Of a stretch of DNA of 64,000 nt, positions 38,441-63,326 are shown piece by piece. Location: assembly GCF_014281055.1 (NCBI RefSeq), contig NZ_JACRSE010000005.1:186001-250000 (forward strand), in the 5' to 3' direction. This stretch comes from Fluviispira vulneris. Lineage in GTDB: Bacteria > Bdellovibrionota_B > Oligoflexia > Silvanigrellales > Silvanigrellaceae. The notes beneath the pieces are model-generated. The model worked only from the letters and a program-made list of their open reading frames with translations, had not been told where the DNA came from and did no database searches. Positions within the stretch are counted from its first letter, which is position 1. The number at the start of each line of letters is the position of its first letter. The position numbers and the translations under genes were made by a program.

Positions 38441-39533
38441 CTAATTTATCGCTTGCTGAATTTGGCACTCGTATTCATAAGGATTATCAGTTTCTTCTAG
38501 AGCAACTCTGCGAATTTCATCAATATCTCTTTGCATGGCTTCCTTAAATCGCCCTGTTTGTATGTTTCATTCCATTCTCCACCTCCTAGGTTATTCTCTG
38601 CATCTTGCGGCACGAGGTTAATTTTCTCTCCGGGCCGACCAAAGCGATTGGCGATAATATGACCACCTTGATCCATTTTTTTCTTCGTATAAGGAACTAA
38701 CTTCCCTTTTTTAGCAGCAGTAATTTGCTGATACCCGTTTCTATCTTTTCCTTTTACTAAATCTAAATCAGTTTCGACAGAAGAGGTGCGGGCTAAATGA
38801 TCCGTCTCAAATTTAATTTTGTTATCAACAAAATAAATAGTGTCAGCTTCAGGATTATTTAATTCTTTATTACAATTTCCTTTTTTACCAGAATTTACAT
38901 AAACCACAGGCTTTTGTTTTGGAGCAGTTTTGCTTCCCCCATTTGCTTGTGAATTTCCGTTAATAGAAGTCTAAGAATGACTTCCTCCATTAAACTGTGA
39001 TTGAGCGGCTAACTTTTTTTCCTGTCGACTCAAACAATAACGAGAGCTAAGAGCATGAATTAAATTTTTGCCATTTGCGTTCGCTCTATATTCACCAATG
39101 CGTGATAGTGCTTGCAATTTATATTTATCTTTTACAGGATCTAAATCTAATACATCACTTAAAAGTTCAGTTTTTTCTTTATAACTTTCTTCTTCTGCAA
39201 TAGCATTTTCACAAATATTAAAAAAATCTAAAACTTTATCGCCAAAACTTTCTTCTTCAACATTACTCGTGATTTTTTCAATAAAATTTTCTTGAGCTAA
39301 TTTTTGTGAGACTAAAGTGCAACCACAGGATGCTTTGTGTCCATTTAATGCAACAGGTCTACCATTTATGAGAAAATTTTCATCTCCCTCAATGATGACA
39401 CCTGTACCATGGGAACAAATGACAGAATCACCCACTAAAGCAATATTTAATCCGCCAATTTCATAACCAGAACATTGAACGACAATGCCACCACCTGTTG
39501 TTGTTCTCCTTTTAAAATAACACCCTTTTTCAT
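38441..39533 (-). pseudogene. Broken PAAR-nuclease effector (type VI secretion)
   Basis: Three lesions disrupt one reading frame. The ATG at 39533 opens MKKGVILKGE, matching the intact PAAR gene's MQKGIVVEGD; a 1-base loss in the ACAACAACA stretch (about 39495-39505) breaks it. The next frame holds a PAAR domain (IVVQCSG...CGCTLVS). A TAG stop at 38971-38973 follows, but the same frame continues into a DNA/RNA non-specific endonuclease-like domain with DQGGHIIANRFGRPGE (about 38640-38690). After GGGEWNETYKQG a 1-base loss shifts the frame, and the downstream text (RFKEAMQRDIDEIRRVA) matches the C-terminus of the AHH-type toxin at 41519. Probably non-functional. Confidence 0.8.
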
Positions 39534-39585
39534 AGTGCAACTTCCTATTGCTCTTTAGGAATAATTATTATTTCAATAGATAAAT

Positions 39586-40155
39586 TTATTTTATAGTGAC
39601 TGCATTTGTCGCACCCTTAAGCTGAATTTCTTTCGCTGTAACTATGACAATCCCTGATTCTTCAAGGGTAATTTTTACATTTCCAACTTTAAATGTAATT
39701 GATTTTTCAGCTTTGAATTCGATATTTTCTTTTGCCTGCAAGCGTAATTTATTTAATGTATTTAAATCTATATTGCCTTTAGCATTTTGAACTATTTCTT
39801 TCTCTGTTTCGAATTCAATGTTTTCATTGGCACTTAATTTAATATGCTTTTCGGCCACAATTACTGATTGCTCTTGTGTGCTTAAAATAAAATGCTTTTC
39901 GCTGAACATTTCTATTTGTTCTTTAGCATAAATGGAATAATATTTTTCAGTCCTTATTTCCATTTCCTCTTTTGCTTCATGCAGCATATTTTTTTGCGTT
40001 TTAAACTCCATCTGCTCTTTTGAAGTGGAGAGCATGTTTTTAGAAGTTTTCATAGACATGGTTGACATAGACTGTGTTAAATGATCCCCAAAGGAACGGA
40101 TTTTCATATGCTTTGCTGCAGAGATATCGACGGAGGATTTTTTGTGATCCATCAC
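39586..40155 (-). pseudogene. Decapitated vgrG: C-terminal beta-helix tail only
   Basis: A 189-residue open frame (GTG start) that begins within VgrG tail sequence (MDHKKSSVDISAAKHMKIRS) and is almost identical to residues 576-645 of the intact VgrG (42525-44816), then diverges while keeping 16-residue repeats of the KEQIEMFSEKHFILST type. Homology runs on upstream of the start to 40213 and then stops abruptly; a stop codon lies upstream in frame. The gp27/gp5 head is missing, so it cannot form a spike alone. It could serve as a donor of tail sequence. Confidence 0.8.
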
Positions 40156-40213
40156 GAGGAAATTATTTTTCTTATTTTCAGACGGCTGATCGTAAATGGC
40201 GAGGACATGTTTA
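39951..40213. repeat. Direct repeat A, copy 1 (vgrG remnant)
   Basis: 263 bases that match 42890-43152 in the intact vgrG with about 13 differences counted by eye (about 95 percent). Same orientation, 2.9 kb apart. The match ends sharply at both ends, marking the breakpoint of the vgrG remnant. Confidence 0.85.
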
Positions 40214-40297
40214 ATTATCTTGCGAACTATTGGGTATTATTTATCAGGATTTTAATTAATACAAATGACAATGGGTATATTGGTTTCGACTGTAATT

Positions 40298-40735
40298 TTA
40301 TTTTATATTAAGACTGCAACCTTCTTTAAAGTCAACATAGACGCATGCACATTCAGCAACTCGTTCATCTGCATGTGGAACATAAATTCTTAGTTTATTA
40401 TTTTTTAAATTGACACCCATAAGATCTTGTTCATATTTAATTTTCTTAGAAGTCAAAATTCTAAGTAAATGCTGATAGTCATTTCCAAGTAGGTAAACGT
40501 TATCTTCAATTAAAATACGATTGGGTTGGAAAATTTCTAAACCTTCAAGTTTATTTGTCTCATCATCGTAGAATGCATGAATAACCAAATTATAAAAATC
40601 ATCTGAAGTTACTTTACAAATGGGGGTTTTTTTAAAAGCCTGTACTTTGGAACTAAATATTTTTCTTACTTCATCCCTAGTCATGCCCACTTTTAATTGT
40701 CCTTTTTTTGCATCATCTATGAATTCAAATATCAT
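40298..40735 (-). CDS. Predicted immunity protein
   Basis: A 145-residue cytoplasmic protein with no signal. It aligns by eye with the first 150 residues of the neighbouring fusion protein: an N-terminal KKGQLKVGMTRDEVRKIF against KKGILKKELNPSEVRNII, a central KIKYE against KIEYI, LRIYVPHAD against IGLYIPDID and VYVDFKEGCS against IYVDFSKKDCS. It lies 9 bases after the fusion gene, at the position where an immunity gene for the second nuclease domain is expected. Family not recognised. Likely binds and neutralises the toxin domain fused upstream. Confidence 0.6.
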   Translation of the reverse strand: MIFEFIDDAKKGQLKVGMTRDEVRKIFSSKVQAFKKTPICKVTSDDFYNLVIHAFYDDETNKLEGLEIFQPNRILIEDNVYLLGNDYQHLLRILTSKKIKYEQDLMGVNLKNNKLRIYVPHADERVAECACVYVDFKEGCSLNIK

Positions 40736-40744
40736 ATTTTCCTC

Positions 40745-41509
40745 TTATTTTTTTATAATAAAATCTTTTGGATTTAATGTCCTAGCATATTCTTTCATTT
40801 CCTTAATTGCGATTGAATATGTTGAACTAGTTTTCGACTTAATGTCATTTTCATCTTTTTTAATAGCTTCCATTACTTTGCTGTTTTGAACAAGTTGCTT
40901 TTGAAGTTCTAAGTATTTTAACGTCTTCAGATTTTTTCCATGACTGGCTAAGTACCTTTCATCACCATAATTCATTCTTATAGCAGGACCAGCATTAGGA
41001 GTAATTTTGCTATTCATATATGTTACTTTAGAAGGAATGTGATGAGATGTTAATCTTTCAAAAGAGATGCTGCAATCTTTTTTGCTAAAATCTACATAAA
41101 TTGCTTTTACAATAATTGGTCCATCATCTTCTGTAGGATTTTCAATGTCGATATCTGGAATGTATAAACCAATATTTTCATTTTCTAATTTAATTCCTGT
41201 GTCGTGTTTAATATATTCAATTTTTTTAATTTTTAAATGCTCTAATAATTTTTCATAGGAACAAAATAAATTAAAACCATTATAATCAAACCAATAGTTA
41301 TGTTCACTTATTCCAAAATTAAATAATTCATTATTCTTATTGTACATAGCATTTAACTTGATTGAATTAAAAGAATCATTTTGAGAACTAAACTCAGTTG
41401 ATTCGTAATAAGTAAAATTGCTTTTGATAATGTTTCTAACCTCGCTTGGATTTAATTCTTTTTTTAAAATCCCCTTTTTATAATTATTATAATATTTAAA
41501 AATAAACAT
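40745..41509 (-). CDS. Immunity-like domain fused to AHH-type nuclease domain
   Basis: A 254-residue protein in two parts. Residues 1-150 are a complete copy of the predicted immunity protein encoded just downstream, ending at YVDFSKKDCSISF. Residues 152-254 are a nuclease-like domain related to the end of the adjacent PAAR effector: SHHIPSKVTY, GPAIRM, SHGKNLKTLKYLELQKQLVQ, YSIAIKEMKEYARTLNP. The DH pair of the effector (residues 246-247) is DE here. There is no PAAR or secretion domain. It follows the PAAR effector by 9 bases. The simplest reading is loss of the stop between an immunity gene and a second toxin cassette. Confidence 0.75.
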   Translation of the reverse strand: MFIFKYYNNYKKGILKKELNPSEVRNIIKSNFTYYESTEFSSQNDSFNSIKLNAMYNKNNELFNFGISEHNYWFDYNGFNLFCSYEKLLEHLKIKKIEYIKHDTGIKLENENIGLYIPDIDIENPTEDDGPIIVKAIYVDFSKKDCSISFERLTSHHIPSKVTYMNSKITPNAGPAIRMNYGDERYLASHGKNLKTLKYLELQKQLVQNSKVMEAIKKDENDIKSKTSSTYSIAIKEMKEYARTLNPKDFIIKK

Positions 41510-41518
41510 ATAGCATCC

Positions 41519-42481
41519 TTATTTAAAATCACTTGGATTTAAAGTTTTTAAATATTCTTCCATTTCTTGAATTGCGCATTTATATTTATTAGGATCTCCC
41601 TTTTTGACAGCAATTCTATAGACATCATCAATATCCATTTGGACGGCTTCCTTTAATCTACCTTGTTGAATAAAATCTTTTTGCTTATCTATATATTGTA
41701 TGCTCTCTAGGCCCTTACTTCCATGACTCATTGTATCTATATGATCTTCTGGATCCATCTGTATAGCAGGACCTTTCATTGCTCTTCCATCGGGATTCAT
41801 TTTTGATCCTTTATAAGCGCTTTTTGCAGGAATATGGTGTGAATCTTTTCCATCACCAATTGGCAAACGTGTTTTCTCATGTACGCCACCCCTGTATTTA
41901 TTGTTAGAACAATCCAACTTAGTCTCAACGTCAGATTTCTTAATTTTATTTATTTGATCTTGCTGCTTTTGTAAAGAATTTTGATTTTGATTTACAACGT
42001 AATTATCTCTGAAAGAACAAGCTAAACCTTTTGCAATAATAAGCGGAGAGCGCTTCAGTCTTGAATTTTCTGGTTTGTCATAATCTTTACAAACATATTC
42101 TATTGGGTCATCAACAAATTCATGTATATTATTTATTGTTTCTACAATAAATTCTTCAATTTCTTCTTCTATTTTATATAATACACTTTTTAAATTTTCA
42201 AAAAAAGAAGGTTCTGGAACGTCTATTTTATTTTTTTCACCAATTTGTTCTGCAATTAAACTGCAGCCGCAAGAAGTTTTATGTCCTTCAAGAGCAATCC
42301 CTCGCCCGTCTATTTTAATATTTGAATCTCCTTCGGAAATAGCTCCAAATCCATGAGACGCACAATGAATTAGATCTCCTTCTAGGGCAATTTTAAAACC
42401 ATCGACATATGTGCCAGTTCCTTTCACAACGACTCCACCATTTGAAAGCGGATCTCCTTCGACAACAATTCCTTTTTGCAT
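41519..42481 (-). CDS. PAAR-domain effector with AHH-type nuclease C-terminus
   Basis: A 320-residue polymorphic toxin. Residues 1-80 form a PAAR domain, which caps the VgrG spike: GDLIHCASHG, IKIDGRGIALEGHKTSCGCSLI. An acidic linker follows (about 90-195). Residues 200-320 are an HNH/EndoVII-like nuclease related to the AHH family: SHHIPAK (His215-216), GPAIQMDPEDH (D246, H247), SHG and a helical tail (QGRLKEAVQMDIDDV). It lies 43 bases after vgrG and is followed by an immunity-like gene, the usual order. Expected to be delivered into a neighbour cell and cut nucleic acid; the nuclease assignment is by motif only. Confidence 0.78.
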   Translation of the reverse strand: MQKGIVVEGDPLSNGGVVVKGTGTYVDGFKIALEGDLIHCASHGFGAISEGDSNIKIDGRGIALEGHKTSCGCSLIAEQIGEKNKIDVPEPSFFENLKSVLYKIEEEIEEFIVETINNIHEFVDDPIEYVCKDYDKPENSRLKRSPLIIAKGLACSFRDNYVVNQNQNSLQKQQDQINKIKKSDVETKLDCSNNKYRGGVHEKTRLPIGDGKDSHHIPAKSAYKGSKMNPDGRAMKGPAIQMDPEDHIDTMSHGSKGLESIQYIDKQKDFIQQGRLKEAVQMDIDDVYRIAVKKGDPNKYKCAIQEMEEYLKTLNPSDFK

Positions 42482-42524
42482 TTTGCAACATCCTATTGCT
42501 TAATACATTAAAATTTTTATTCTG

Positions 42525-44816
42525 TTAATTTATTTTATGAGCTCTTGAAGCTCCTTGAATAATTATTTCTTTCCCTTTAAATATTATATTCCCTGAAGGA
42601 TCTAAGATTATTTGGCTTTCACCAGCTTGAATAATTATTTTTTTTTCAGATTTTATCATAATGTCATCTTTTGCAGATAGATCTAAATTTTTATCCGTTA
42701 ATAATTCCATAAATTCTTTTGAAGTAATTGATATATGAGTGTCAGCTTTGAGCTCTGAGTATTCAAATGAATTTACAGAAAAATATTGATCTGTTTTAAT
42801 TTCAGCCTGTTCTTTTGTCGCTAAAAGATAATATTTATCAGAAAATATTTCTATCTGCTCTTTTGCTTGCAAATGAAAATTCTTTTCCGTCCTTATTTCC
42901 ATTTCCTCTTTGGCTTCGTGCAGCATATTTTTTTGCGTTTTAAACTCCATCTGCTCTTTTGAGGTAGAGAGCATATTCTTAGAAGTTTTCATAGACATGG
43001 TTGACATAGATTGAGTTAAATGATCCCCAAAGGAACGGATTTTCATATGCTTTGCTGCAGAGATATCGACGGAGGATTTTTTGTGATCCATAACGAGGAA
43101 GTTATTTTTCTTATTTTCAGACGGTTGATCGTAAATGGCGAGTACGTGTTTATTCTCTTTGGCGCTCACAGGATATTTGCATTTTTGGTTATACAGACAG
43201 CCGAGCACTACGGGGAGATCGGGATCGCCATCTTCAAACGAAACAACCACTTCGTCACCATGGCGAGGGGTGACAAACATTCCATAATTTTGGCTTGCCC
43301 ACGGGCTCATAAAGCGGGCTAAGATATAATCTGACTTTACGGGTAAACCCTTATATTGCCAAGGTAACATCACCTTAATATAATTCTTTTCACCATCGAG
43401 ATCTATTTTCTCATCATCTGCTTTTACGATTCCATGCATTGTTCCATCGATATAATTGCGTTCATAATCTTGTTTTATTCCGTAAGTTATTTCCGCTGGA
43501 TGCATATTCATTTCTGTGAAGTATTGGCAATTGTTTTTTCCGAATTGAGATTGGCAATTAAATACAAAACGCAAATTATGCACACGATAATTTTTTAACT
43601 TTTTTAACTCGCCGTATATTTTTTTGAATTTATCCCTGTCATAATTGGCATTCACCCTGCTGCCTAAATAAATATCGAGGCAATTTGTCATTCCACTTGC
43701 TTGAAAAGTCGGAAATGTGTTTTTTAATTCTAGTTTTTCTGCGCGTCTATCGAGAAATTTAATACTCGAATCGGTTAATGAGTATTTTTTAGCCCCCTCC
43801 TGTCCATAGGTCCATTTTAATTGCAAAGGGGTTTTGTGTTTAGGCGGAAGTTTTGAAACAGCTTCTTTGCTTTTTAAGGGAACACCATGTCTGCGCGCGT
43901 CGGAATCAAGCACTTGAATAGGTGCAGGAATACCCGTATTTATAAAACGCAGGCCGTATAAAAAATTCTTTTTTTCAAACGATTGCTCAGCCAGAGTTTC
44001 CCACATAACACTTTGATCGTCGATTAAATCCAGCGTGGTTTCTTTTTTTATTCCTGTTGGAATTAACATCTCGGGTGCTAAGATTTCATCAAATATCATT
44101 ATTTCGCATTTTTTATCTTTGAAGGTAACAACATATTCCCAATCTTCTTCTTCAATCAGGCGTAAAACAAAATCCCAATGTGACTCTCCATTTTGCACAC
44201 AATTGATTCGATTGCTTTTAACGGGATAGGTAATGCAAAAGTCAGGCTTAAATTTTTCGGTTAATAAACTCTCTTTGCAGAAATCCGCAAAAACATCTTC
44301 AATTATTTCTTCGACAGTTTTATTAACATAAGCGCGATAAGCATTGGTCTGTTGCATAAATGCAGGCAGAGGTGCCGCAGCGATCTGCAGAATGATTGTT
44401 TCGACCCCATCATGTTCAACGGATGAAATTTGAAAGTTTTGGATATAACCATTAAATTCTCTGACTTTGAGTGAGTAACCATTGAGCAAGTGTGCATGAA
44501 TTTCTTTGAAATAAAAATAAGCCGATATATTTTCGCTATCAATCACATGTCCATGCAATTGCATATCGGATAAAAATTTTACAAATTCATTTTTACTGAG
44601 TTCAATCCTTAAGTCTATTCTAAACAAAGAGCTTATACTTTCTTTTATTTCAAACTGGGAAACTCCACTTTCAAATATTATTTTTTTATCGGCAATAAAC
44701 TCCACGATAAATCTATGGCCGGTGTTATTTTCAACCGCAGAAAGAACATCTAAACAGGGATAAGGCTTGATTACTAATTTCTTTGCTGCACTGACGACAT
44801 TTGCTAATAAATCCAT
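42525..44816 (-). CDS. vgrG: VgrG spike protein of a type VI secretion system
   Basis: A 763-residue protein. The head (1-390) matches gp27-like VgrG (HVIDSENISAYF, CVQNGESHWDFVLRLIEEEDWEY), the middle (about 430-545) is the gp5 OB-fold (YIKVMLPWQYKG, WASQNYGMFVTPRHGDEVVVSFEDGDPDLPVVLG, cut here as GDEVVVSFEDGDPD). From residue 588 to 731 there are nine contiguous 16-residue repeats, for example KEQMEFKTQKNMLHEA and KEEMEIRTEKNFHLQA, forming a beta-helical spike. It trimerises at the Hcp tube tip and carries the PAAR effector encoded 43 bases downstream. No other type VI core genes are in the window, so it is an orphan. Confidence 0.93.
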   Translation of the reverse strand: MDLLANVVSAAKKLVIKPYPCLDVLSAVENNTGHRFIVEFIADKKIIFESGVSQFEIKESISSLFRIDLRIELSKNEFVKFLSDMQLHGHVIDSENISAYFYFKEIHAHLLNGYSLKVREFNGYIQNFQISSVEHDGVETIILQIAAAPLPAFMQQTNAYRAYVNKTVEEIIEDVFADFCKESLLTEKFKPDFCITYPVKSNRINCVQNGESHWDFVLRLIEEEDWEYVVTFKDKKCEIMIFDEILAPEMLIPTGIKKETTLDLIDDQSVMWETLAEQSFEKKNFLYGLRFINTGIPAPIQVLDSDARRHGVPLKSKEAVSKLPPKHKTPLQLKWTYGQEGAKKYSLTDSSIKFLDRRAEKLELKNTFPTFQASGMTNCLDIYLGSRVNANYDRDKFKKIYGELKKLKNYRVHNLRFVFNCQSQFGKNNCQYFTEMNMHPAEITYGIKQDYERNYIDGTMHGIVKADDEKIDLDGEKNYIKVMLPWQYKGLPVKSDYILARFMSPWASQNYGMFVTPRHGDEVVVSFEDGDPDLPVVLGCLYNQKCKYPVSAKENKHVLAIYDQPSENKKNNFLVMDHKKSSVDISAAKHMKIRSFGDHLTQSMSTMSMKTSKNMLSTSKEQMEFKTQKNMLHEAKEEMEIRTEKNFHLQAKEQIEIFSDKYYLLATKEQAEIKTDQYFSVNSFEYSELKADTHISITSKEFMELLTDKNLDLSAKDDIMIKSEKKIIIQAGESQIILDPSGNIIFKGKEIIIQGASRAHKIN
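42890..43152. repeat. Direct repeat A, copy 2 (intact vgrG)
   Basis: Partner of 39951-40213, inside vgrG at the OB-fold to tail junction. Recombination between the two copies would delete the effector and immunity genes in between or swap VgrG tails. Confidence 0.85.
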
Positions 44817-56161: not shown

Positions 56162-56649
56162 AGAGCAATTCTCCTAATAAATGATCAGAAAAAACAAAAC
56201 CTCTCAATACACAATTGAGCATTCACACTCAACCTGTCAAACGTATAAAGATAATATTCTCATAAGACAAATTGCAAGTTTTGCATGCGGATTACAATTT
56301 GCTTGAAAGATAATACAAATCAATAAAACACATCGGTATTATCAAGCTGCTTCTCAATTTTAACATGCAATACGGATGACATATTTTCTGCTGATTCCTG
56401 ATTGATCTTATCAAATTTTGCCGCACATTTTTTGCCTGTGTTGAGTTTTTGAAATTTGCATGAAATACATTTTTGATTCGCCTTTAGATTAAACGCCAGG
56501 TATAAAATATTTCTTAAATAAAATAAAAAAATTTTATACGTTGTTTTTTCAGTCAGATAAAAACCCAGCTAAGCTAAAAATTTAAAAACTTGATCTTTTA
56601 AAATTTTATTTTAAGATTTTTTAAATATTTAATTCATGTAGGAGGATTT
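56162..56649. other. Intergenic region upstream of sdhC with a small palindrome
   Basis: 488 bases between divergent genes. CTCAAT (56203-56208) and ATTGAG (56214-56219) form a short inverted repeat about 45 bases before sdhC, and a TTGACA lies at 56240-56235 on the minus strand without a clear -10. No RNA gene seen. Confidence 0.4.
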
Positions 56650-56976
56650 ATGAAAATTTTAGTTTCTTTAATTATTTTTGCAGGATTTATTGTGAGTTGT
56701 GGGAAGGATAAGGGCGAAAATGTAGAGTATGCGCAGTGTAAAAAAGAAGATCCAACCAATCAAGTTTGTCAGTTTATTGGAACTATAAATAATATTAAAA
56801 TCGAATTATACCCCTATGATGAATGCGAAAATGATAGACAGTTTTATTTAAAAAATAATATTATAACTCAGAATGAATACAACACACTTGTTAAGTTTAA
56901 TTTTAGACCAATTATAAGCCGCTTAAAGACTCTTTCTACAGTTGTTGACTGCCACCCCAAACCTAAAGAGAATTAA
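56650..56976 (+). CDS. Small lipoprotein, unknown function
   Basis: A 108-residue exported lipoprotein. The signal peptide ends in a lipobox IVSC with Cys17, followed by GKD. The mature part holds four further Cys residues and no family that I recognise. Start has AGGAGG. The end overlaps the LysE-type gene by 4 bases, convergent. Confidence 0.7.
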   Translation: MKILVSLIIFAGFIVSCGKDKGENVEYAQCKKEDPTNQVCQFIGTINNIKIELYPYDECENDRQFYLKNNIITQNEYNTLVKFNFRPIISRLKTLSTVVDCHPKPKEN

Positions 56977-57596
56977 CCCACCTTAGACACAAGCAAGGTC
57001 ACAGCAAAAAAGCACATAACGAGACCGGAAAAGATTGAAATATAGCGAGCTTTGTTTTGTAAAAATCCGGATGCTTTGCGAGCAAGTAAAAGATAAGTTA
57101 ACATTGATAAACACGTAACGATAATTTGAATAATACACAACGTAATAAGTTGAGAAAATGCTTTCTCATCCTGCGTTATAAACTGTGGAATAAGGGCAAC
57201 ATATATAAATAATACTTTTGGGTTCGTGATACAGCATAAAAAGGCTTCACTAAAAAGAGCTTTTTTCGACCGCTCTGCAATTGATTCGGTTAAAGAAAAT
57301 TTTAGATTGCCTTTGCTCATAAAAGACTTAATTCCCAAATAAAATAGATACAAAGCACCGACTATTTTTAGTCCCATAAAAAAATTGGGTGATATTTTTA
57401 AGACACCACCAACACAAAATACAGTGACTGCGGCAAAAAATAAAAGAGCAAAAGCAGTACCTGGAACCGCAAATAAAGCATTATTTAATTTATACTTTAA
57501 GCCATTGTTGATCATGAGGACAACATTTGGCCCTGGTGAATAAGCAAGTGCCAAAACTGTCCAAGTAAACAACAAATAAACATTTAAATTTTCCAT
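56973..57596 (-). CDS. LysE/RhtB-type amino acid exporter
   Basis: A 207-residue inner-membrane protein with six predicted helices and the LysE signature near the start (ALAYSPGPNVVLMINNGLKY) as well as CITNPKVLFIYVALIPQF. It exports amino acids such as homoserine, threonine or lysine. Last gene of a tight six-gene run (11 bases after the AlaX-like gene). In that context it would export the pathway product. Confidence 0.9.
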   Translation of the reverse strand: MENLNVYLLFTWTVLALAYSPGPNVVLMINNGLKYKLNNALFAVPGTAFALLFFAAVTVFCVGGVLKISPNFFMGLKIVGALYLFYLGIKSFMSKGNLKFSLTESIAERSKKALFSEAFLCCITNPKVLFIYVALIPQFITQDEKAFSQLITLCIIQIIVTCLSMLTYLLLARKASGFLQNKARYISIFSGLVMCFFAVTLLVSKVG

Positions 57597-57607
57597 ATAT
57601 TTCCTTA

Positions 57608-58375
57608 TTAAACTAATTTGTCATGAAAACGATCGAGCAAAGGGGTAAAATTCATATTTTTAATTTCGAAATAAATGCGTTCAATTCCTTTTGACTTTCC
57701 TTTACGCTTGATATGAATATCACCCACATCATACAGAGCATCGAGGTGAGTTCCGCCACAAGGAATGGAAATGCCATTCATCCTCCAGATTCGGCATTCT
57801 GGCTCACCGGGAATTTCAACCATTTCAACCTTGTCTTTATTTAGAATAGACTTCTCAACGAATGACTTTATAAACTTTACATCATCTTCAAGAAATTTTT
57901 CAACTCCAACATCAAACCGGCCACCATCATTGCCAATAAGGCAGCCAAAAGTCGTTTCAGGAACTGTACTTCTGAGTTCTGTCATACCCATATACACTAC
58001 ATGTGATACTGTGTGACTTATGGTCAATTCACAACGGTTTTTCAGATCGATTTCGACTTCAATCTCTCCAGAATCTGGCAATAAGTCAAAATTTTCTTGC
58101 GCTAGAGTCAAGCGAACTTCTCCCTCAACATTTATCAGAGGAAAATCTTTTCTAACGACTGAGCGCCCTATTCCTACAGACTTTTGTGTGTCAATAAAAG
58201 GTAAAATTAAATCTTTATATTTAACCACTCCTTTATCTCCCAACTGACCGCCTCCTTCCGGATAGGCAATGGATCGCGCCAATGCGATTGTATTGCAGTC
58301 TCTTTTTTCAAATTGGGAGATCGCTCGTCTACTGTATGGGAATTGATAATAGAGTTTTTCTGTTTTATAAGTCAT
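57608..58375 (-). CDS. AlaX-like alanyl-tRNA editing hydrolase
   Basis: A 255-residue standalone editing protein related to the editing domain of AlaRS/ThrRS. It has the YPEGGGQLGDKG box, HTVSH (zinc HxxxH) and PCGGTH (zinc C and H), so the metal site is complete. Such proteins deacylate tRNAs wrongly charged with Ser, Gly or other small amino acids. The start at 58375 overlaps the class V gene stop by 4 bases (ATGA). In this operon it may protect the host from misincorporating an unusual amino acid. Confidence 0.88.
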   Translation of the reverse strand: MTYKTEKLYYQFPYSRRAISQFEKRDCNTIALARSIAYPEGGGQLGDKGVVKYKDLILPFIDTQKSVGIGRSVVRKDFPLINVEGEVRLTLAQENFDLLPDSGEIEVEIDLKNRCELTISHTVSHVVYMGMTELRSTVPETTFGCLIGNDGGRFDVGVEKFLEDDVKFIKSFVEKSILNKDKVEMVEIPGEPECRIWRMNGISIPCGGTHLDALYDVGDIHIKRKGKSKGIERIYFEIKNMNFTPLLDRFHDKLV

Positions 58376-59457
58376 AAAATTCCTTTCAAACATGTGCGAA
58401 TTCTTTGTAATAAATCTTCTAAATTCACCGTTGCATCGGGACTGAGTCGAATGCATTCATTTCTAATTTTTGCAATGACGCCGAATTCAAGCAGTTTATT
58501 ATAAATTTCCAAAGTATCAATATTTTCTAAGGTAAATGACACAATACCTGAGCATTTATCTTCTTCAATTGGTGAATGAACATTTGCTCCATAACTTAAT
58601 AATAGCTGAGTTATAGCAAAAGAATTTTGTTTTATTTTTTTTACGACAATATCATAGTTTTCATTTAATAATTCTGATATTGCACTCTGTAAACTTATAA
58701 ATGAAACTCCACTTAAAGTTCCTAATTCAAATCTTAGCAATGTATGATCAATTTGACGATTTTTGCAATCGTACTGATTCCGATCTGAAAAACTATTGTA
58801 GCCAAAAATAGTTTGTTCTATGAGCAAATTCATTCTCTCTGAAACAAGAGCAAACGCAGCTCCCTCGAGGGCACGAAGCCATTTGTGGCCAGCAGAAATA
58901 AAAAAATCAATTTCGTGAATGTCAAAATCAATTGCGCAGGAACCAATTCCTTGCACAGCATCCACAGCAAAAATTACGTTGTTTTTTCGACACCATTGTG
59001 AAAGTTCTTTTAGATTATTTTTATAGCCATTCCAATAATTCACCCATTCTATCAACATAACATCAATTTTTACATCTTGTAAATCTTTAACTTTAATTTC
59101 ACCTTTATCATTTCCAATCTCGATTACTTTATAATTATTTTTTTCAAAAGATAATTTTATACCACCAATTGTTGGAAAATATTCTTTTGGAATGGCAATA
59201 ACACTTCCTTCTTTCAGTTTTAATTGTGAAAGTATGATACTCATAGCATCGGTTGTTGAAGTATAAAAAAGAACACTATTCTGCTTATTTTTTAAAAGTT
59301 CTGAAATTTTTACGCGGCACTCTTCTACTTTTTCCCAACCACTTTTATAGCCTGTTAAATAAAAATTATTTTCCTTATAAGAGTTTATAAACTCCATAAC
59401 AACTGAGTGCGTTTCAGAGCGCAGTTGGCCAACAGATGCTGTATTTGCATAAATCAT
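58372..59457 (-). CDS. Class V aminotransferase-like PLP enzyme
   Basis: A 361-residue fold-type-I PLP enzyme. The PLP Lys is in SAGHKWLRALEG (about 199), preceded by AVDAVQGIGS (Asp binding the pyridine N). This subgroup includes cysteine desulfurases, serine-pyruvate aminotransferases and isopenicillin-epimerase-like proteins; the exact reaction is not evident. Start is an ATG at 59457 with AGG upstream. It overlaps the AlaX-like gene by 4 bases. Confidence 0.85.
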   Translation of the reverse strand: MIYANTASVGQLRSETHSVVMEFINSYKENNFYLTGYKSGWEKVEECRVKISELLKNKQNSVLFYTSTTDAMSIILSQLKLKEGSVIAIPKEYFPTIGGIKLSFEKNNYKVIEIGNDKGEIKVKDLQDVKIDVMLIEWVNYWNGYKNNLKELSQWCRKNNVIFAVDAVQGIGSCAIDFDIHEIDFFISAGHKWLRALEGAAFALVSERMNLLIEQTIFGYNSFSDRNQYDCKNRQIDHTLLRFELGTLSGVSFISLQSAISELLNENYDIVVKKIKQNSFAITQLLLSYGANVHSPIEEDKCSGIVSFTLENIDTLEIYNKLLEFGVIAKIRNECIRLSPDATVNLEDLLQRIRTCLKGIL

Positions 59458-59471
59458 TTTCAATACCTATT

Positions 59472-60398
59472 TTAAATTTTAAGAGCACAATTGATTTCAT
59501 CTGTATAGGTTTCTCCTCTATCAGGAGAAATGATTAGAACTATTTCGTTTGTATTACATTGCTTTAAAAGTTGTTTTTTAGCAATACTCAATGCTAAACA
59601 TGTACTCATACCAACTGTATAAGAATTTCTGTTTGTGAATATTTTCATTTCATGCAGTGTTCTATAAATATTAGACACAAGAATTTCATCGATATATTTT
59701 GCCGCTTCTAAAAATGTCAAACATATTTCATCTTCAGAACCCACACCCCGACATGTTGATAATTTATATGTAATTGATCGTTTTGCCTGATTCACAATGC
59801 TACTCGAAATATCACAACCAACTATTTTTGTTGCAAATCCATTTTCTTTAAGTGCGAGGCTTACCCCTGCAAGCAGCCCCCCAGTACCGACAGGAGCTAC
59901 AACATACTTTGGTTTGATCTGCATTGCTTTAAGATCGTTTACCAATTGCATTCCTAAAGTTTCTTTAAATGCATTTATAAGATCTAAATTATTATGTTGA
60001 TCAAATGAATACCAACCTTCTTTATCAATTAGATAATTTAATTCTTCTATACGGACAGAATTATTTTTTACCATTTTAAAGCAACCATTTTTGCTCTCGA
60101 CTACTTTTGCTAAATAGGGATGAGGAACTTTTGTCGTAATAAACTGAGTTTTCCCTTTTGCTAGATGTACACAATGTGATAATGCCATTGACCAAGAGCC
60201 ACTGCTTCTATCTGCTACTTTAGAAAGGTCGATTTTTTTATCTAACGCCTTTTTTACTAAGTATGCTGCGGAACGAAATTTATGATTGTAATTCAGCGAT
60301 CCTCCTTCTAATTTTATATAAATACGTTCGTCATCGGGAGATTGAACAAGAGGAGTCTGCAAATACATAATTCTGTTTAAACAATCTATACTGTTCAT
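59472..60398 (-). CDS. Fold-type-II PLP enzyme (cysteine synthase/threonine-lyase like)
   Basis: A 308-residue enzyme of the tryptophan synthase beta superfamily. The PLP Lys is in NYNHKFRSA (about residue 40), followed by SSGSWSMALSH, which fills the substrate-phosphate or carboxylate loop, and GTGGLLAGVS, which binds the PLP phosphate. Such enzymes do beta- or gamma-replacement or elimination on activated Ser/Thr/homoserine. Start at 60398 has AGGA six bases upstream. The upstream gene is a threonine/serine-kinase-like protein, so an O-phospho amino acid is a likely substrate. Confidence 0.82.
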   Translation of the reverse strand: MNSIDCLNRIMYLQTPLVQSPDDERIYIKLEGGSLNYNHKFRSAAYLVKKALDKKIDLSKVADRSSGSWSMALSHCVHLAKGKTQFITTKVPHPYLAKVVESKNGCFKMVKNNSVRIEELNYLIDKEGWYSFDQHNNLDLINAFKETLGMQLVNDLKAMQIKPKYVVAPVGTGGLLAGVSLALKENGFATKIVGCDISSSIVNQAKRSITYKLSTCRGVGSEDEICLTFLEAAKYIDEILVSNIYRTLHEMKIFTNRNSYTVGMSTCLALSIAKKQLLKQCNTNEIVLIISPDRGETYTDEINCALKI

Positions 60399-60418
60399 AG
60401 TTTTTCCTAAATAATATT

Positions 60419-61042
60419 CTAAAGACAAATAACTTCATCACAATAAAGGTGTTGTTTATTTAAATAAAATTCATTTAATTCTAATGAATCACATATTATT
60501 ATATTTTGATTATTATAAGTCAAAACTTTTTCTATATATTTCTCTTGTGATTTTTCTTCGTTGTAGAGTAATACTTTTGAACAGACTTCTACACCTGTAA
60601 AATGATTAGGCAAAGCTAATAACCCTTCTTGAATATAGTACTTATCACTCTGTACATAAACATACCCACTTAGAAATGAAAGACCCAAACTTTTATTCTG
60701 CATTGTTTGAATAATATCAATTTGTAAATTTTTTACATTCGATCGATTACTTATAGCTTGTAAAAGTGACAAAATATACAAACAACATATATCGTCAGTA
60801 TTGCCAATTTTATTTCTCAGATAGTTTAGTAAAATATTAAAATTTTGTGGCAATTTATCAAGCAATTCTCTTATATAAATATTTTCACTTATCAACGAAC
60901 AAGAGTAGTCATAGATTTTTAAAAAATCATTATCTATCTCGACTTTGAATGAAATATTTAAATCTGAATTTGTAACTGGAATAATAACTTCTAGATCCTG
61001 ACTAACTATAGGTAAATAAGTATTATAAAATTTTATTTCCAT
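60419..61042 (-). CDS. Unknown protein in the kinase/PLP operon
   Basis: A 207-residue soluble protein with no recognised domain. It is beta-rich at both ends with a helical middle. There are no obvious catalytic clusters. The start is an ATG at 61042; a GTG at 61054 overlapping the kinase stop is possible. The gene lies between the kinase and PLP enzyme, so it is translated with them and is likely part of the same pathway. Confidence 0.6.
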   Translation of the reverse strand: MEIKFYNTYLPIVSQDLEVIIPVTNSDLNISFKVEIDNDFLKIYDYSCSLISENIYIRELLDKLPQNFNILLNYLRNKIGNTDDICCLYILSLLQAISNRSNVKNLQIDIIQTMQNKSLGLSFLSGYVYVQSDKYYIQEGLLALPNHFTGVEVCSKVLLYNEEKSQEKYIEKVLTYNNQNIIICDSLELNEFYLNKQHLYCDEVICL

Positions 61043-61050
61043 TTTATTTC

Positions 61051-61923
61051 TCACACATCATATGACATGATTTTTGAATAAGTACTTCTGTAAATTTCAA
61101 ATGCAAAATTCTTTCTATTCAAAATATTTACAATATTACTTTTTTTAATATTATATTCAGGATCTGTTATATTTAAAATAATCCCGATAGCTGTCCCAGA
61201 GTGAGCAACACATACCCCACAAGCTCGATTCGCCAAACATATTTCTAAGATTTCGTCAAAATTCTTTTTTGGCAAATAATTCTGACTGATTTGTGCACTC
61301 ATTGTAGCACATTTCCCTAAAATTTCAGTATTCCTAATCTTTAGAGCAAACTTAAGCTGCTGATAAATTATTTCAAATTTTCTTAATTCATCATTGCTGT
61401 ATTTTATATTTTTTGAATTAAATTTTAAAGTATCAACCTCGCCTTCTTCCATTATACCAATTATTTCAAAAGGGATAAAACCTAGGCTTTCCTTTAGTAG
61501 GCAGTCATGATGATAATAGGCATTAAAACCAGAATACATCACACCATCCGTTGGTTCGACCTGACGGCAAATTGAGGAAATCAAATCACGCTCACTCTCT
61601 TCATCATATTTTTCATTATGCAATATAGCTTTTAAAGTAGCGACTATATCAGCTGAGCTAGAAGCTAGCCCTTTGCCACGAGTCAATTCTGAAAGAATTA
61701 CAAGTGAATAATTTCCTTTTTTTCCTAATTTCTCTCTTAATATATCAGCAGCTCGATAGCTTTTTGCATAAATATCTCTGTTATCAAGAATAGTTCCTTC
61801 AAGATATTTTACGCAAGAAAATTTTTGAATTGGAAGCGTAACTAGAAAAGGTTTAGAATGAATAACTCCTTGGATAAGTTCACCAAAGGTACCGTTACAA
61901 ACAGCTTGTGATTGAGTGTGCAT
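61051..61923 (-). CDS. GHMP-family kinase, PduX (L-threonine kinase) like
   Basis: A 290-residue small-molecule kinase. Features match PduX: CNGTFGELIQG (about residue 8-18), the ATP loop GKGLASSSADI (about 95-105), QVEPTDGVMYSG and the C-terminal GVCVAHSGTAIGI. PduX makes O-phospho-L-threonine for the cobalamin nucleotide loop, but no cobalamin gene is near. In this operon the phosphorylated amino acid would feed the PLP enzyme downstream. Start at 61923 is the best fit by length to PduX; a TTG at 61974 is an alternative. Confidence 0.82.
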   Translation of the reverse strand: MHTQSQAVCNGTFGELIQGVIHSKPFLVTLPIQKFSCVKYLEGTILDNRDIYAKSYRAADILREKLGKKGNYSLVILSELTRGKGLASSSADIVATLKAILHNEKYDEESERDLISSICRQVEPTDGVMYSGFNAYYHHDCLLKESLGFIPFEIIGIMEEGEVDTLKFNSKNIKYSNDELRKFEIIYQQLKFALKIRNTEILGKCATMSAQISQNYLPKKNFDEILEICLANRACGVCVAHSGTAIGIILNITDPEYNIKKSNIVNILNRKNFAFEIYRSTYSKIMSYDV

Positions 61924-62423
61924 ATATGTATTAAATCTTTCTATAGAATAATAAAAAAATTCTTCAAATATCAAAAAGTGAATATTTAATCCTATAAATT
62001 ACATTTCATAACAATTACATTTAATGAACTACTCTTAAAGATTTTTCAGTGCAAGATTATTTATTAAATTTTTTATTTCATATTTTTATATAGACTTCCA
62101 ATTATTTTAATAGAAATTATGATATTTTTCAAATTCATAATTCCTAGATTACCATAAATAATATCTGCTTAAATTAATTTCTTAAGGCAAATAAGAAATT
62201 TGATTAAAATATAAATGTAAGTCTTTTTTATTTTATCCACGATTATTTCTAAAATAATATATATTAAGTATTATTTTATTTTTTATAAAAAAATTCTAAT
62301 TTTTGAACAAGATAAATTCACCAACTCCTTCCTTAAGAGCATCTTCAATTCTTAGAATTTTGTGAAATAGAATAAAAACAGAAGCTTAATAGAAATAATG
62401 AATTTAATTATATATGTGCTATA
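61924..62423. other. AT-rich intergenic region ahead of the kinase operon
   Basis: About 500 bases, extremely AT-rich, between the minus-strand operon and rsmA, which is also minus. It must hold the operon promoter and the end of the rsmA transcript. No RNA gene or clear operator found. Confidence 0.45.
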
Positions 62424-63326
62424 TCATTTAGAATAGAAAAATTTGTGCATTGCAAGAATTGTAGATGGAGATAATACATCAGGCCTGGTTTCTTCGCTGA
62501 TACCGAGTGAGGAAGCTAATTGCCAAAATTCACTCATTTTACCCGGATTTTTTTCCTCAAGCTGCTGAAGCTGCGCATGCAAAGCTCTTCTTAGCATTTT
62601 TCGCCGCGCGCTAAATAAAACAGTTGTAAAAGAACTAAAAGCATTGTCTTCTTCTTGAGTTGGAAATGAAAAGCTCTTCGGACTAAGCAAAACAATAGCA
62701 GAATCAACTTTCGGCTGAGGAACAAAACATTTTGCAGGGACGACAAAAAGTTTTTTGACTTCAAAAAAAAGTTGAATACGTACGCTCAAGCGTCCGTAAT
62801 CCTTTGTTCCTGGCTTTGCCTGAAGCCTATCTGCAACTTCATTTTGCACCATGAAAATGCCATGTGTATAAAATTTATAATATTTACAAAACCAAAAAAG
62901 AATGTCACTTGTAATATAATAAGGTAAATTTCCAACGCAAATACATTTTTGCTCTAAACTAAGAGAACGATCTTCACTTGGATCCCATTTTAAAATATCA
63001 GTCTGCACAACTTGAAATTGCTCTTTATAATCTTTTGCTAAAGTTTCATTTAACCCTTGCACTGATCGTTCGTCTTTTTCTAGTGCTGTTATTTTTATAT
63101 TTTTTTGTAGAAGAGGAAGGGTCAATGCACCTGATCCTGGACCAATTTCATGCACATATTTTTGTTCTTTTTCACTAAAAAGTGTATTAATAGAACTGGC
63201 TATTTTTTCAACTACGTTTGCATCTCTTAAAAAATTCTGACCAAGGGATTTCTTTGCGTGAAGATGAAAAGCATGGTCTGCTTTCTCTTTTTTGAATTCT
63301 TTTTCTTTTTTGAATTTACTGCGCAT
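62424..63326 (-). CDS. rsmA: 16S rRNA dimethyladenosine transferase
   Basis: A 300-residue methyltransferase that dimethylates the two adjacent adenosines near the 3' end of 16S rRNA. Signatures: KKSLGQNFLRD, SAM motif I HEIGPGSGALTLPL, NLPYYITSDIL (catalytic motif IV) and FVPQPKVDSAIV. The N-terminus is Lys-rich (KFKKEKEFKKEK). I place the start at 63326 with AGGA upstream; longer frames run into the divergent gene. Confidence 0.95.
   Translation of the reverse strand: MRSKFKKEKEFKKEKADHAFHLHAKKSLGQNFLRDANVVEKIASSINTLFSEKEQKYVHEIGPGSGALTLPLLQKNIKITALEKDERSVQGLNETLAKDYKEQFQVVQTDILKWDPSEDRSLSLEQKCICVGNLPYYITSDILFWFCKYYKFYTHGIFMVQNEVADRLQAKPGTKDYGRLSVRIQLFFEVKKLFVVPAKCFVPQPKVDSAIVLLSPKSFSFPTQEEDNAFSSFTTVLFSARRKMLRRALHAQLQQLEEKNPGKMSEFWQLASSLGISEETRPDVLSPSTILAMHKFFYSK

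What the first reader, a model, noticed from the sequence alone, without database searches (positions are those of the whole stretch)
57608..58375. AlaX-like editing protein as candidate self-resistance factor
A complete zinc site (HTVSH and PCGGTH) and 4-base overlap with a PLP biosynthetic gene suggest that the hydrolase clears tRNAs mischarged with the operon's product. Free-standing editing domains as part of biosynthetic operons are rarely described.
Basis: inference. Interest (0 to 1): 0.55.

Follow-up and report, generated by a model that had tools for sequence, protein, structure and literature searches.

The report
Editing enzyme guarding an amino-acid operon
A bacterial gene cluster that looks built to make and export an unusual amino acid carries a proofreading enzyme that probably strips that amino acid off transfer RNAs, so that the producer does not build it into its own proteins.

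Summary
Confirmed: 58375-57608 (minus) encodes a 255-aa free-standing AlaX-type protein with intact HxxxH (H121, H125) and CxxxH (C206, H210), starting inside the stop codon of a class-V PLP gene (ATGA). It is gene five of a tight six-gene operon: PduX-like kinase, unknown orf, SbnA-like PLP enzyme, class-V PLP enzyme, AlaX, LysE/RhtB exporter. The operon is an accessory block between ksgA and sdhC, seen in 2 of 8 genus genomes. The host's AlaRS and ThrRS keep their own editing domains. A third congener has a lone AlaX that lacks PCGGTH. On plasmids, AlaX recurs beside amino-acid exporters and amino-acid biosynthesis (coronamic-acid genes plus LysE in Pseudomonas tremae; acetyltransferase, cysteine-synthase-like enzyme and exporter in Xenorhabdus and Salmonella; LysE or DMT in Priestia and Agrobacterium), though most AlaX loci viewed have no exporter beside them. 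The window protein belongs to a divergent branch with a 13-20-residue insertion. Best reading: trans-editing self-protection against the operon's own product, working like FthB/FthC for 4-fluorothreonine but from the AlaX superfamily. Neither product nor tRNA is known; nothing was tested biochemically. New variant of a known kind.

The parts
61051..61923 (-). GHMP kinase homologous to PduX L-threonine kinase (start at the ATG matching the orthologue; the longer listed ORF begins at TTG 61974)
   Evidence: Pfam GHMP_kinases_N above cut-off; 25.5% to an annotated PduX and 26.8% to an annotated L-threonine kinase; 34-36% to kinases beside PLP (cysteine-synthase-type) and lyase-family genes in Rhizobium and Kitasatospora. 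Interrupted by a frame-breaking gap in L003.
60419..61042 (-). 207-aa protein of no known family (orf211)
   Evidence: No Pfam or NCBIfam family above cut-off, no convincing PDB relative (best E 0.25); 51% to the orthologue; matched in 2 of 58 phylum genomes; model pLDDT 53.7, no confident fold match.
59472..60398 (-). Fold-type II PLP enzyme, SbnA-like (predicted beta-replacement enzyme)
   Evidence: PALP above cut-off; best NCBIfam SbnA, below its cut-off; best PDB matches 5b53/5b55 (cysteine synthase), then SbnA 5d87; Lys kept, SSG-S in place of GGN/AGN-TG.
58372..59457 (-). Class-V (cysteine-desulfurase-like) PLP enzyme, probably not a desulfurase
   Evidence: Aminotran_5; PLP Lys in SAGHKW; the Cys aligned near the desulfurase Cys (RNECIRLSP) is Arg in the orthologue (RNDRIRVSP).
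57608..58375 (-). AlaX-type free-standing aminoacyl-tRNA editing protein (the finding)
58372..58375 (-). ATGA: start codon of alaX overlapping the stop codon of the class-V gene
   Evidence: kept in L003
58001..58015 (-). HTVSH, first half of the zinc site (H121, H125)
57746..57763 (-). PCGGTH, second half of the zinc site (C206, H210)
58265..58273 (-). S35-I36-A37 in place of the usual T-x-F before the Gly-rich loop
58115..58192 (-). Segment D62-V87 with the branch-specific insertion (26 residues; 9-11 in the AlaX proteins outside the branch and in AlaRS)
56973..57596 (-). LysE/RhtB-family amino-acid exporter, 11 nt after alaX
   Evidence: Pfam LysE 80.3 vs 25.6 bits; homoserine/threonine efflux models match below their cut-offs; one of 4 LysE matches in the genome

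Best explanation
The operon makes a small non-proteinogenic L-amino acid and protects its host from it. Inferred steps: the PduX-like kinase phosphorylates threonine (possibly serine or homoserine); the SbnA-like PLP enzyme replaces the phosphate by another group (beta-replacement); the class-V PLP enzyme and orf211 finish the product; the LysE/RhtB protein exports it. Product left inside is mistaken for alanine, threonine, serine or valine by a host synthetase, and the AlaX-type zinc hydrolase removes it from the tRNA before translation. Shown: gene order, motifs, homologies, conservation, accessory status and recurrence of AlaX with exporters. Inferred: every chemical step, the product, the tRNA and the hydrolysis.
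For: Six co-directional genes with gaps of 8, 20, 14, -4 and 11 nt. Accessory block between ksgA and sdhC: 6.3 kb in G000 and 8.2 kb in G010, against 0.36-0.80 kb in the 5 other genus genomes where both genes lie on one contig; in G013 (72% complete) they lie on different contigs. Whether gain or loss is not determined. Host AlaRS and ThrRS keep HxxxH and CxxxH, so ordinary Ser/Gly clearance is covered. Free-standing AlaX in 3 of 15 order genomes; the one without the operon (G014) has no PCGGTH in any frame. Strong constraint on alaX, PALP and lysE (pN/pS 0.150, 0.155, 0.168; ksgA 0.228). Kinase relates to kinases in kinase / PLP / lyase sets, one in an NRPS cluster. Independent AlaX associations: coronamic-acid genes + AlaX + LysE; AlaX + ValRS + serine ammonia-lyase + DMT + acetyltransferase + CysK-like; AlaX + CysK-like + acetyltransferase + methyltransferase + AzlC; LysE-AlaX; AlaX-DMT-dehydrogenase-ArgE-like. 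Functional precedent FthB/FthC (passages).
Against: No product or activity is known. Most free-standing AlaX loci that I viewed have no amino-acid exporter beside them: Cetobacterium, three Legionella, Haloterrigena (an amino-acid symporter is its nearest listed upstream gene), Vibrio tritonius, Chimaeribacter, Cupriavidus, Undibacterium, Sinorhizobium, Halorientalis and, by scanned neighbour ORFs, Vibrio THAF, Niallia, Acetoanaerobium. The plasmid gene tables are incomplete, so some negatives may be missed genes. In S. meliloti AlaX follows a plain cysteine synthase A, so an AlaX/beta-replacement link can occur in what looks like ordinary sulphur metabolism. The kinase is broken in the only orthologous operon found. 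In G014 a truncated alaX lies near metK and directly before glyQS, without the operon. The class-V enzyme and orf211 have no assigned step. Support for the insertion group is moderate (88/80) and branches are long; two of its seven members (Cetobacterium, Comamonas) sit in no recognisable pathway.
Confidence: 0.6

Rival explanations
1. Ordinary AlaX: it backs up AlaRS by clearing Ser-tRNAAla (or Gly-tRNAAla), needed because the operon shifts serine/threonine pools; it sits in the operon for dosage, not for a special substrate.
For: Zinc site and family are those of AlaX. AlaX is described as redundant Ser-tRNAAla clearance (passages). AlaX next to cysteine synthase A in S. meliloti. Many AlaX loci stand without exporter or pathway.
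Against: 12 of 15 order genomes have no free-standing AlaX at E 1e-5 and the operon-less copy lacks PCGGTH. Altered motif and insertion. Pairing with an exporter.
Confidence: 0.2
2. Detoxification of a foreign amino acid: the operon modifies and exports an environmental toxic amino acid, and AlaX clears tRNAs charged with it, as CtdA does beside canavanine degradation genes.
For: CtdA precedent, encoded directly before canavanine utilisation genes (passages). Exporter and kinase would fit detoxification; accessory, patchy distribution. Cetobacterium and Comamonas members of the branch sit outside any recognisable pathway.
Against: The kinase's and PLP enzyme's relatives are named or placed as anabolic (PduX function in passages). 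No gene of recognised uptake or catabolism among the six.
Confidence: 0.12
3. Biosynthetic use of tRNA: AlaX releases a product assembled on tRNA, with the class-V enzyme acting on phospho-aminoacyl-tRNA in the manner of SepCysS.
For: Class-V hits include Sep-tRNA:Cys-tRNA synthase models (E 3.8e-5 and 0.025); AlaX would be the releasing hydrolase.
Against: These hits rank below many other class-V models; no synthetase gene among the six and no tRNA gene in the window; PduX acts on free threonine (passages).
Confidence: 0.04

Closest known systems
FthB / FthC of 4-fluorothreonine producers (Streptomyces cattleya, McMurry and Chang 2017)
   Same: Stand-alone deacylase plus amino-acid transporter conserved in the locus that makes the toxic amino acid (passages of other papers; the original paper is not held)
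   Different: FthB is related to ProXp-ST1, which I place in the INS superfamily (the superfamily label partly recalled); the window protein is AlaX-type with a tRNA_SAD zinc site. Product unknown here.
AlaX-M (Pyrococcus, PDB 2e1b)
   Same: Homology along the length, same zinc ligands, no C-Ala domain
   Different: Below the AlaXM cut-off, T-x-F becomes S-x-A, 13-20-residue insertion relative to the AlaX rows aligned
CtdA (canavanyl-tRNAArg deacylase, B3/4 family)
   Same: Free-standing editing protein linked to genes handling one toxic amino acid (passages)
   Different: Degradation rather than biosynthesis; other family
AlaX gene of the coronamic-acid cluster, Pseudomonas tremae plasmid
   Same: AlaX followed directly by LysE at the end of genes for a non-proteinogenic amino acid
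   Different: Belongs to the Legionella/Vibrio AlaX branch, no insertion, HxxxE instead of HxxxH
SbnA and kinase/PLP/lyase cassettes (recalled: 2,3-diaminopropionate and 2,3-diaminobutyrate pathways)
   Same: PduX-like kinase homologue next to a fold-type II PLP enzyme
   Different: No lyase-family gene and no SbnB-like gene among the six; class-V enzyme and orf211 instead

Membership tests
AlaX / AlaRS-editing superfamily | tRNA_SAD domain above curated cut-off | tested here: met
   25.7 vs 24 bits
AlaX / AlaRS-editing superfamily | Zinc ligands HxxxH and CxxxH | tested here: met
   H121, H125, C206, H210 aligned
AlaX / AlaRS-editing superfamily | T-x-F before the Gly-rich GGQ loop | tested here: not met
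   S-I-A here and in the two genus relatives, S-V-A in Cetobacterium, T-V-A in Comamonas; T-x-F in 17 and Phe in 18 of 25 rows. I treat it as a variant residue, not as a defining catalytic one.
AlaXM equivalog (NCBIfam NF040865) | Score over the curated cut-off | tested here: not met
   67.5 vs 300 bits
AlaX / AlaRS-editing superfamily | Hydrolysis of Ser-tRNAAla | not testable with these tools
   needs enzyme assay
FthB-type self-protection | ProXp-ST1-related (INS) protein | tested here: not met
   Window protein is tRNA_SAD/AlaX; FthB described as ProXp-ST1-related
FthB-type self-protection | Deacylase gene inside the producing locus with a paired amino-acid exporter | tested here: inconclusive
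   AlaX + LysE in one operon of biosynthetic look, but the product is unproven
FthB-type self-protection | Hydrolyses product-tRNA, spares cognate aminoacyl-tRNA | not testable with these tools
   needs enzyme assay
SbnA-type diamino-acid pathway | SbnA equivalog score | tested here: not met
   85 vs 350 bits
Cysteine desulfurase (class V) | Conserved catalytic Cys | tested here: not met
   Cys in the window, Arg in L003

The most novel reading that the evidence does not exclude
AlaX-type editing domains have repeatedly become self-immunity enzymes of amino-acid antimetabolite pathways. One branch, marked by a 13-20-residue insertion and in part by loss of the T-x-F phenylalanine, is specialised for removing beta-substituted non-proteinogenic amino acids from tRNA, so AlaX plus exporter is a genome-mining flag for unknown amino-acid toxins.
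Probability: 0.4. Interest if true: 0.75.

Novelty: new variant of a known kind. Interest (0 to 1): 0.58.

Why it matters
It would extend producer self-protection by tRNA proofreading from the one studied case that I know of (FthB) to the widespread AlaX superfamily, and give a practical marker (AlaX next to an amino-acid exporter) for finding amino-acid antimetabolites. It also predicts that AlaX substrate range can be retuned, which is directly testable with one protein and charged tRNAs.

Tried and rejected
AlphaFold2 on AlaX with two sequences failed (pLDDT 29.3), so the placement of A37 and of the insertion relative to the pocket is motif inference only. orf211: model pLDDT 53.7, Foldseek best E 0.13, no family, no convincing PDB relative: left unassigned. 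The idea that the class-V enzyme is a cysteine desulfurase was dropped because the Cys is not conserved. Phage collection: one weak hit. The Salmonella cluster in E. coli genomes by megablast: none. orf211 in plasmids: none. PALP in plasmids: 67 records, best about 25% identity, not followed up. PALP in viral contigs: none. Promoter scan of 56500-62500: 46 sites against 31.9 (sd 5.2) in shuffles, terminators 2 against 2.6; not used. Paper searches for AlaX in self-resistance or biosynthetic clusters: 0 papers; 35, 20 listed; 0; 10; 957, 30 listed; among the titles listed I saw none that reports it, but most subscription papers are not held. Searches on Thr30, coronamic acid/CmaU and diaminobutyrate gave nothing used except PMC9700786 on PduX.

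Full report
Observation. The minus strand at 58375-57608 encodes a 255-residue protein beginning MTYKTEKLYY. An ATG further upstream is open, but the ATG at 58375 has GAAAGGA five bases before it and matches an ATG of the orthologue. The last four bases of the class-V PLP gene are its first four (ATGA), and the same overlap is present in Fluviispira multicolorata. tRNA_SAD passes its Pfam cut-off narrowly. HTVSH and PCGGTH align with the ligands of AlaX and AlaRS. The AlaXM model matches along the whole length but far below its cut-off. The nearest PDB chains by sequence are 2e1b (AlaX-M, named so) and 9iuw.

Operon. With starts set by the orthologue, the gaps are 8, 20, 14, -4 and 11 nt: GHMP kinase, orf211, fold-type II PLP enzyme, class-V PLP enzyme, AlaX, LysE. 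The kinase is homologous to an annotated PduX and an annotated L-threonine kinase (25.5% and 26.8%) and closer to kinases that stand beside PLP (cysteine-synthase-type) and 'lyase family' genes in Rhizobium gallicum and, within an NRPS cluster, Kitasatospora (34-36%). PduX makes phosphothreonine from free threonine (passages of PMC9700786). The PLP enzyme's best NCBIfam model is SbnA (below cut-off); its best PDB matches are 5b53/5b55 and then SbnA. I recall, from no call, that 5b53 is an O-phosphoserine sulfhydrylase and that SbnA uses O-phosphoserine. It keeps the PLP lysine and has SSG-S where the CysK-type enzymes aligned have GGN/AGN-TG, like the kinase-linked Rhizobium and Kitasatospora enzymes (SSG-T). 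So a kinase-then-beta-replacement order is likely; it is inference. The class-V enzyme is unlikely to be a desulfurase, since the Cys near the aligned place is Arg in the orthologue. LysE best resembles homoserine/threonine efflux models, below their cut-offs.

Distribution. In the order, 7 of 15 genomes match AlaX at E 1e-5 or better. Four of these are in open frames of 767-953 aa, which I take to be AlaRS; three are free-standing: G000, G010, G014. PALP at E 1e-25 and orf211 at E 1e-3 occur in 2 of 58 phylum genomes, G000 and G010. ksgA and sdhC are 0.36-0.80 kb apart in G008, G009, G011, G012 and G014, on different contigs in G013 (72% complete), and separated by 6.3 and 8.2 kb in G000 and G010: the operon is an accessory block, by gain or by loss elsewhere. 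A LysE paralogue (47-51%) lies elsewhere in G000, G011, G012 and G014, so the operon's exporter may be recruited from the genus's own stock. G014 has an AlaX (55% over 201 residues) near metK and directly before glyQS, with no PCGGTH in any frame.

Constraint. Between the two operons pN/pS is 0.150 for alaX, 0.155 PALP, 0.168 lysE, 0.333 class V, 0.472 orf211, against 0.228 for ksgA and 0.04-0.06 for sdh genes. Synonymous sites are near saturation, so only pN/pS is used. The kinase of F. multicolorata is broken by a frame-disrupting gap; the pathway may be dying there while AlaX and exporter are kept. This counts against a simple story.

Housekeeping need. The genome has three tRNA_SAD matches at E 0.01: AlaRS, ThrRS and AlaX. 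The AlaRS ligands are intact by alignment. The second gene reads as ThrRS by eye, with HSTAH and CRGPH in place. There is no obvious gap for AlaX to fill.

Other AlaX genes. The plasmid search with the window protein gave 24 records; with the P. tremae and Xenorhabdus proteins 65 and 50, and with the Cetobacterium protein 18. These lists overlap and include AlaRS; I opened 22 records (23 calls: 31-35, 37-45, 50-58; one record twice), chosen for variety and annotation, not at random. One of the 22 was AlaRS (L024). Four had no usable gene table (L024, L026, L027, L028); for the last three I scanned the nearest ORFs. An amino-acid exporter directly beside AlaX on the same strand: window, its orthologue, P. 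tremae (LysE after coronamic-acid genes), Priestia (LysE), Agrobacterium (DMT): 5 of the 23 AlaX rows, or 4 of 22 if the orthologue is dropped. Exporter a few genes away within a set of amino-acid genes: Salmonella serovar India (AzlC) and Xenorhabdus (DMT); Comamonas has an EamA gene two genes away with an opposite-strand gene between. No exporter beside it: Cetobacterium, three Legionella, Haloterrigena, Vibrio tritonius, Chimaeribacter, Cupriavidus, Undibacterium, S. meliloti, Halorientalis and, for scanned ORFs, Vibrio THAF, Niallia, Acetoanaerobium: 14 rows; the remaining row, G014, also has none. With 4 LysE matches in 3.6 Mb of the host chance adjacency is rare, but I have no matched background for the other genomes, so no P value is given. 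In eight other Pseudomonas plasmid records the coronamic-acid AlaX is a two-piece match with no annotated gene (one region viewed).

Branch. In the first alignment and three further ones the stretch D62-V87 is 24-29 residues in window, Fluviispira, G014, Cetobacterium, Comamonas, Salmonella and Xenorhabdus and 9-11 in the other 16 AlaX and 2 AlaRS rows. The seven form one side of a branch with support 88/80; window, its two genus relatives, Comamonas and Cetobacterium 100/96. These five also have Ala where 18 of 25 rows have Phe; two Legionella rows have Gly, and Salmonella and Xenorhabdus keep Phe. A wider pocket is a guess; the structure model failed. Two lineages of this branch, the window operon and the Xenorhabdus/Salmonella sets, are tied to a fold-type II PLP enzyme plus an activating enzyme (kinase or serine acetyltransferase), although the PLP enzymes are only distantly related (26% over about half their length).

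Reading. Self-protective trans-editing fits the positive evidence best. It works like FthB/FthC (passages), but FthB is ProXp-ST1-related, so this is not an FthB. Housekeeping AlaX and a CtdA-like response to a foreign amino acid are live rivals. I put the chance of product-linked editing at 0.6.

Noticed in passing
L020 5998-7266 (Pseudomonas tremae plasmid); L036: An AlaX gene lies between coronamic-acid genes and LysE; in eight other Pseudomonas plasmid records it is interrupted and unannotated.
   Followed up: partly
L029 34-9059 (Xenorhabdus sp. TH1 plasmid): AlaX next to a ValRS gene, serine ammonia-lyase, DMT exporter, serine acetyltransferase and a cysteine-synthase-like enzyme: looks like a self-protected amino-acid pathway, perhaps a valine mimic.
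   Followed up: partly
L018 2827-6699 (Salmonella serovar India plasmid): Related AlaX (56%), cysteine-synthase-like (66%) and acetyltransferase (60%) genes plus a methyltransferase and AzlC; no megablast match in E. coli genomes.
   Followed up: partly
alignment: Six AlaX rows (Pseudomonas, three Legionella, two Vibrio) have HxxxE instead of HxxxH in the first zinc motif.
   Followed up: no
L016 8986-9753 (Comamonas endophytica plasmid): AlaX of the same branch as the window protein, interrupted by one in-frame stop, with CGGIH instead of CGGTH.
   Followed up: no
window 60419-61042: orf211, a fast-evolving protein of no known family, matched in 2 of 58 phylum genomes and both times in this operon.
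   Followed up: partly
window 38497-44816: VgrG-like protein (Phage_GPD, Phage_base_V), two PAAR proteins and a small DNA/RNA non-specific endonuclease-domain protein: looks like a type VI secretion effector locus.
   Followed up: partly
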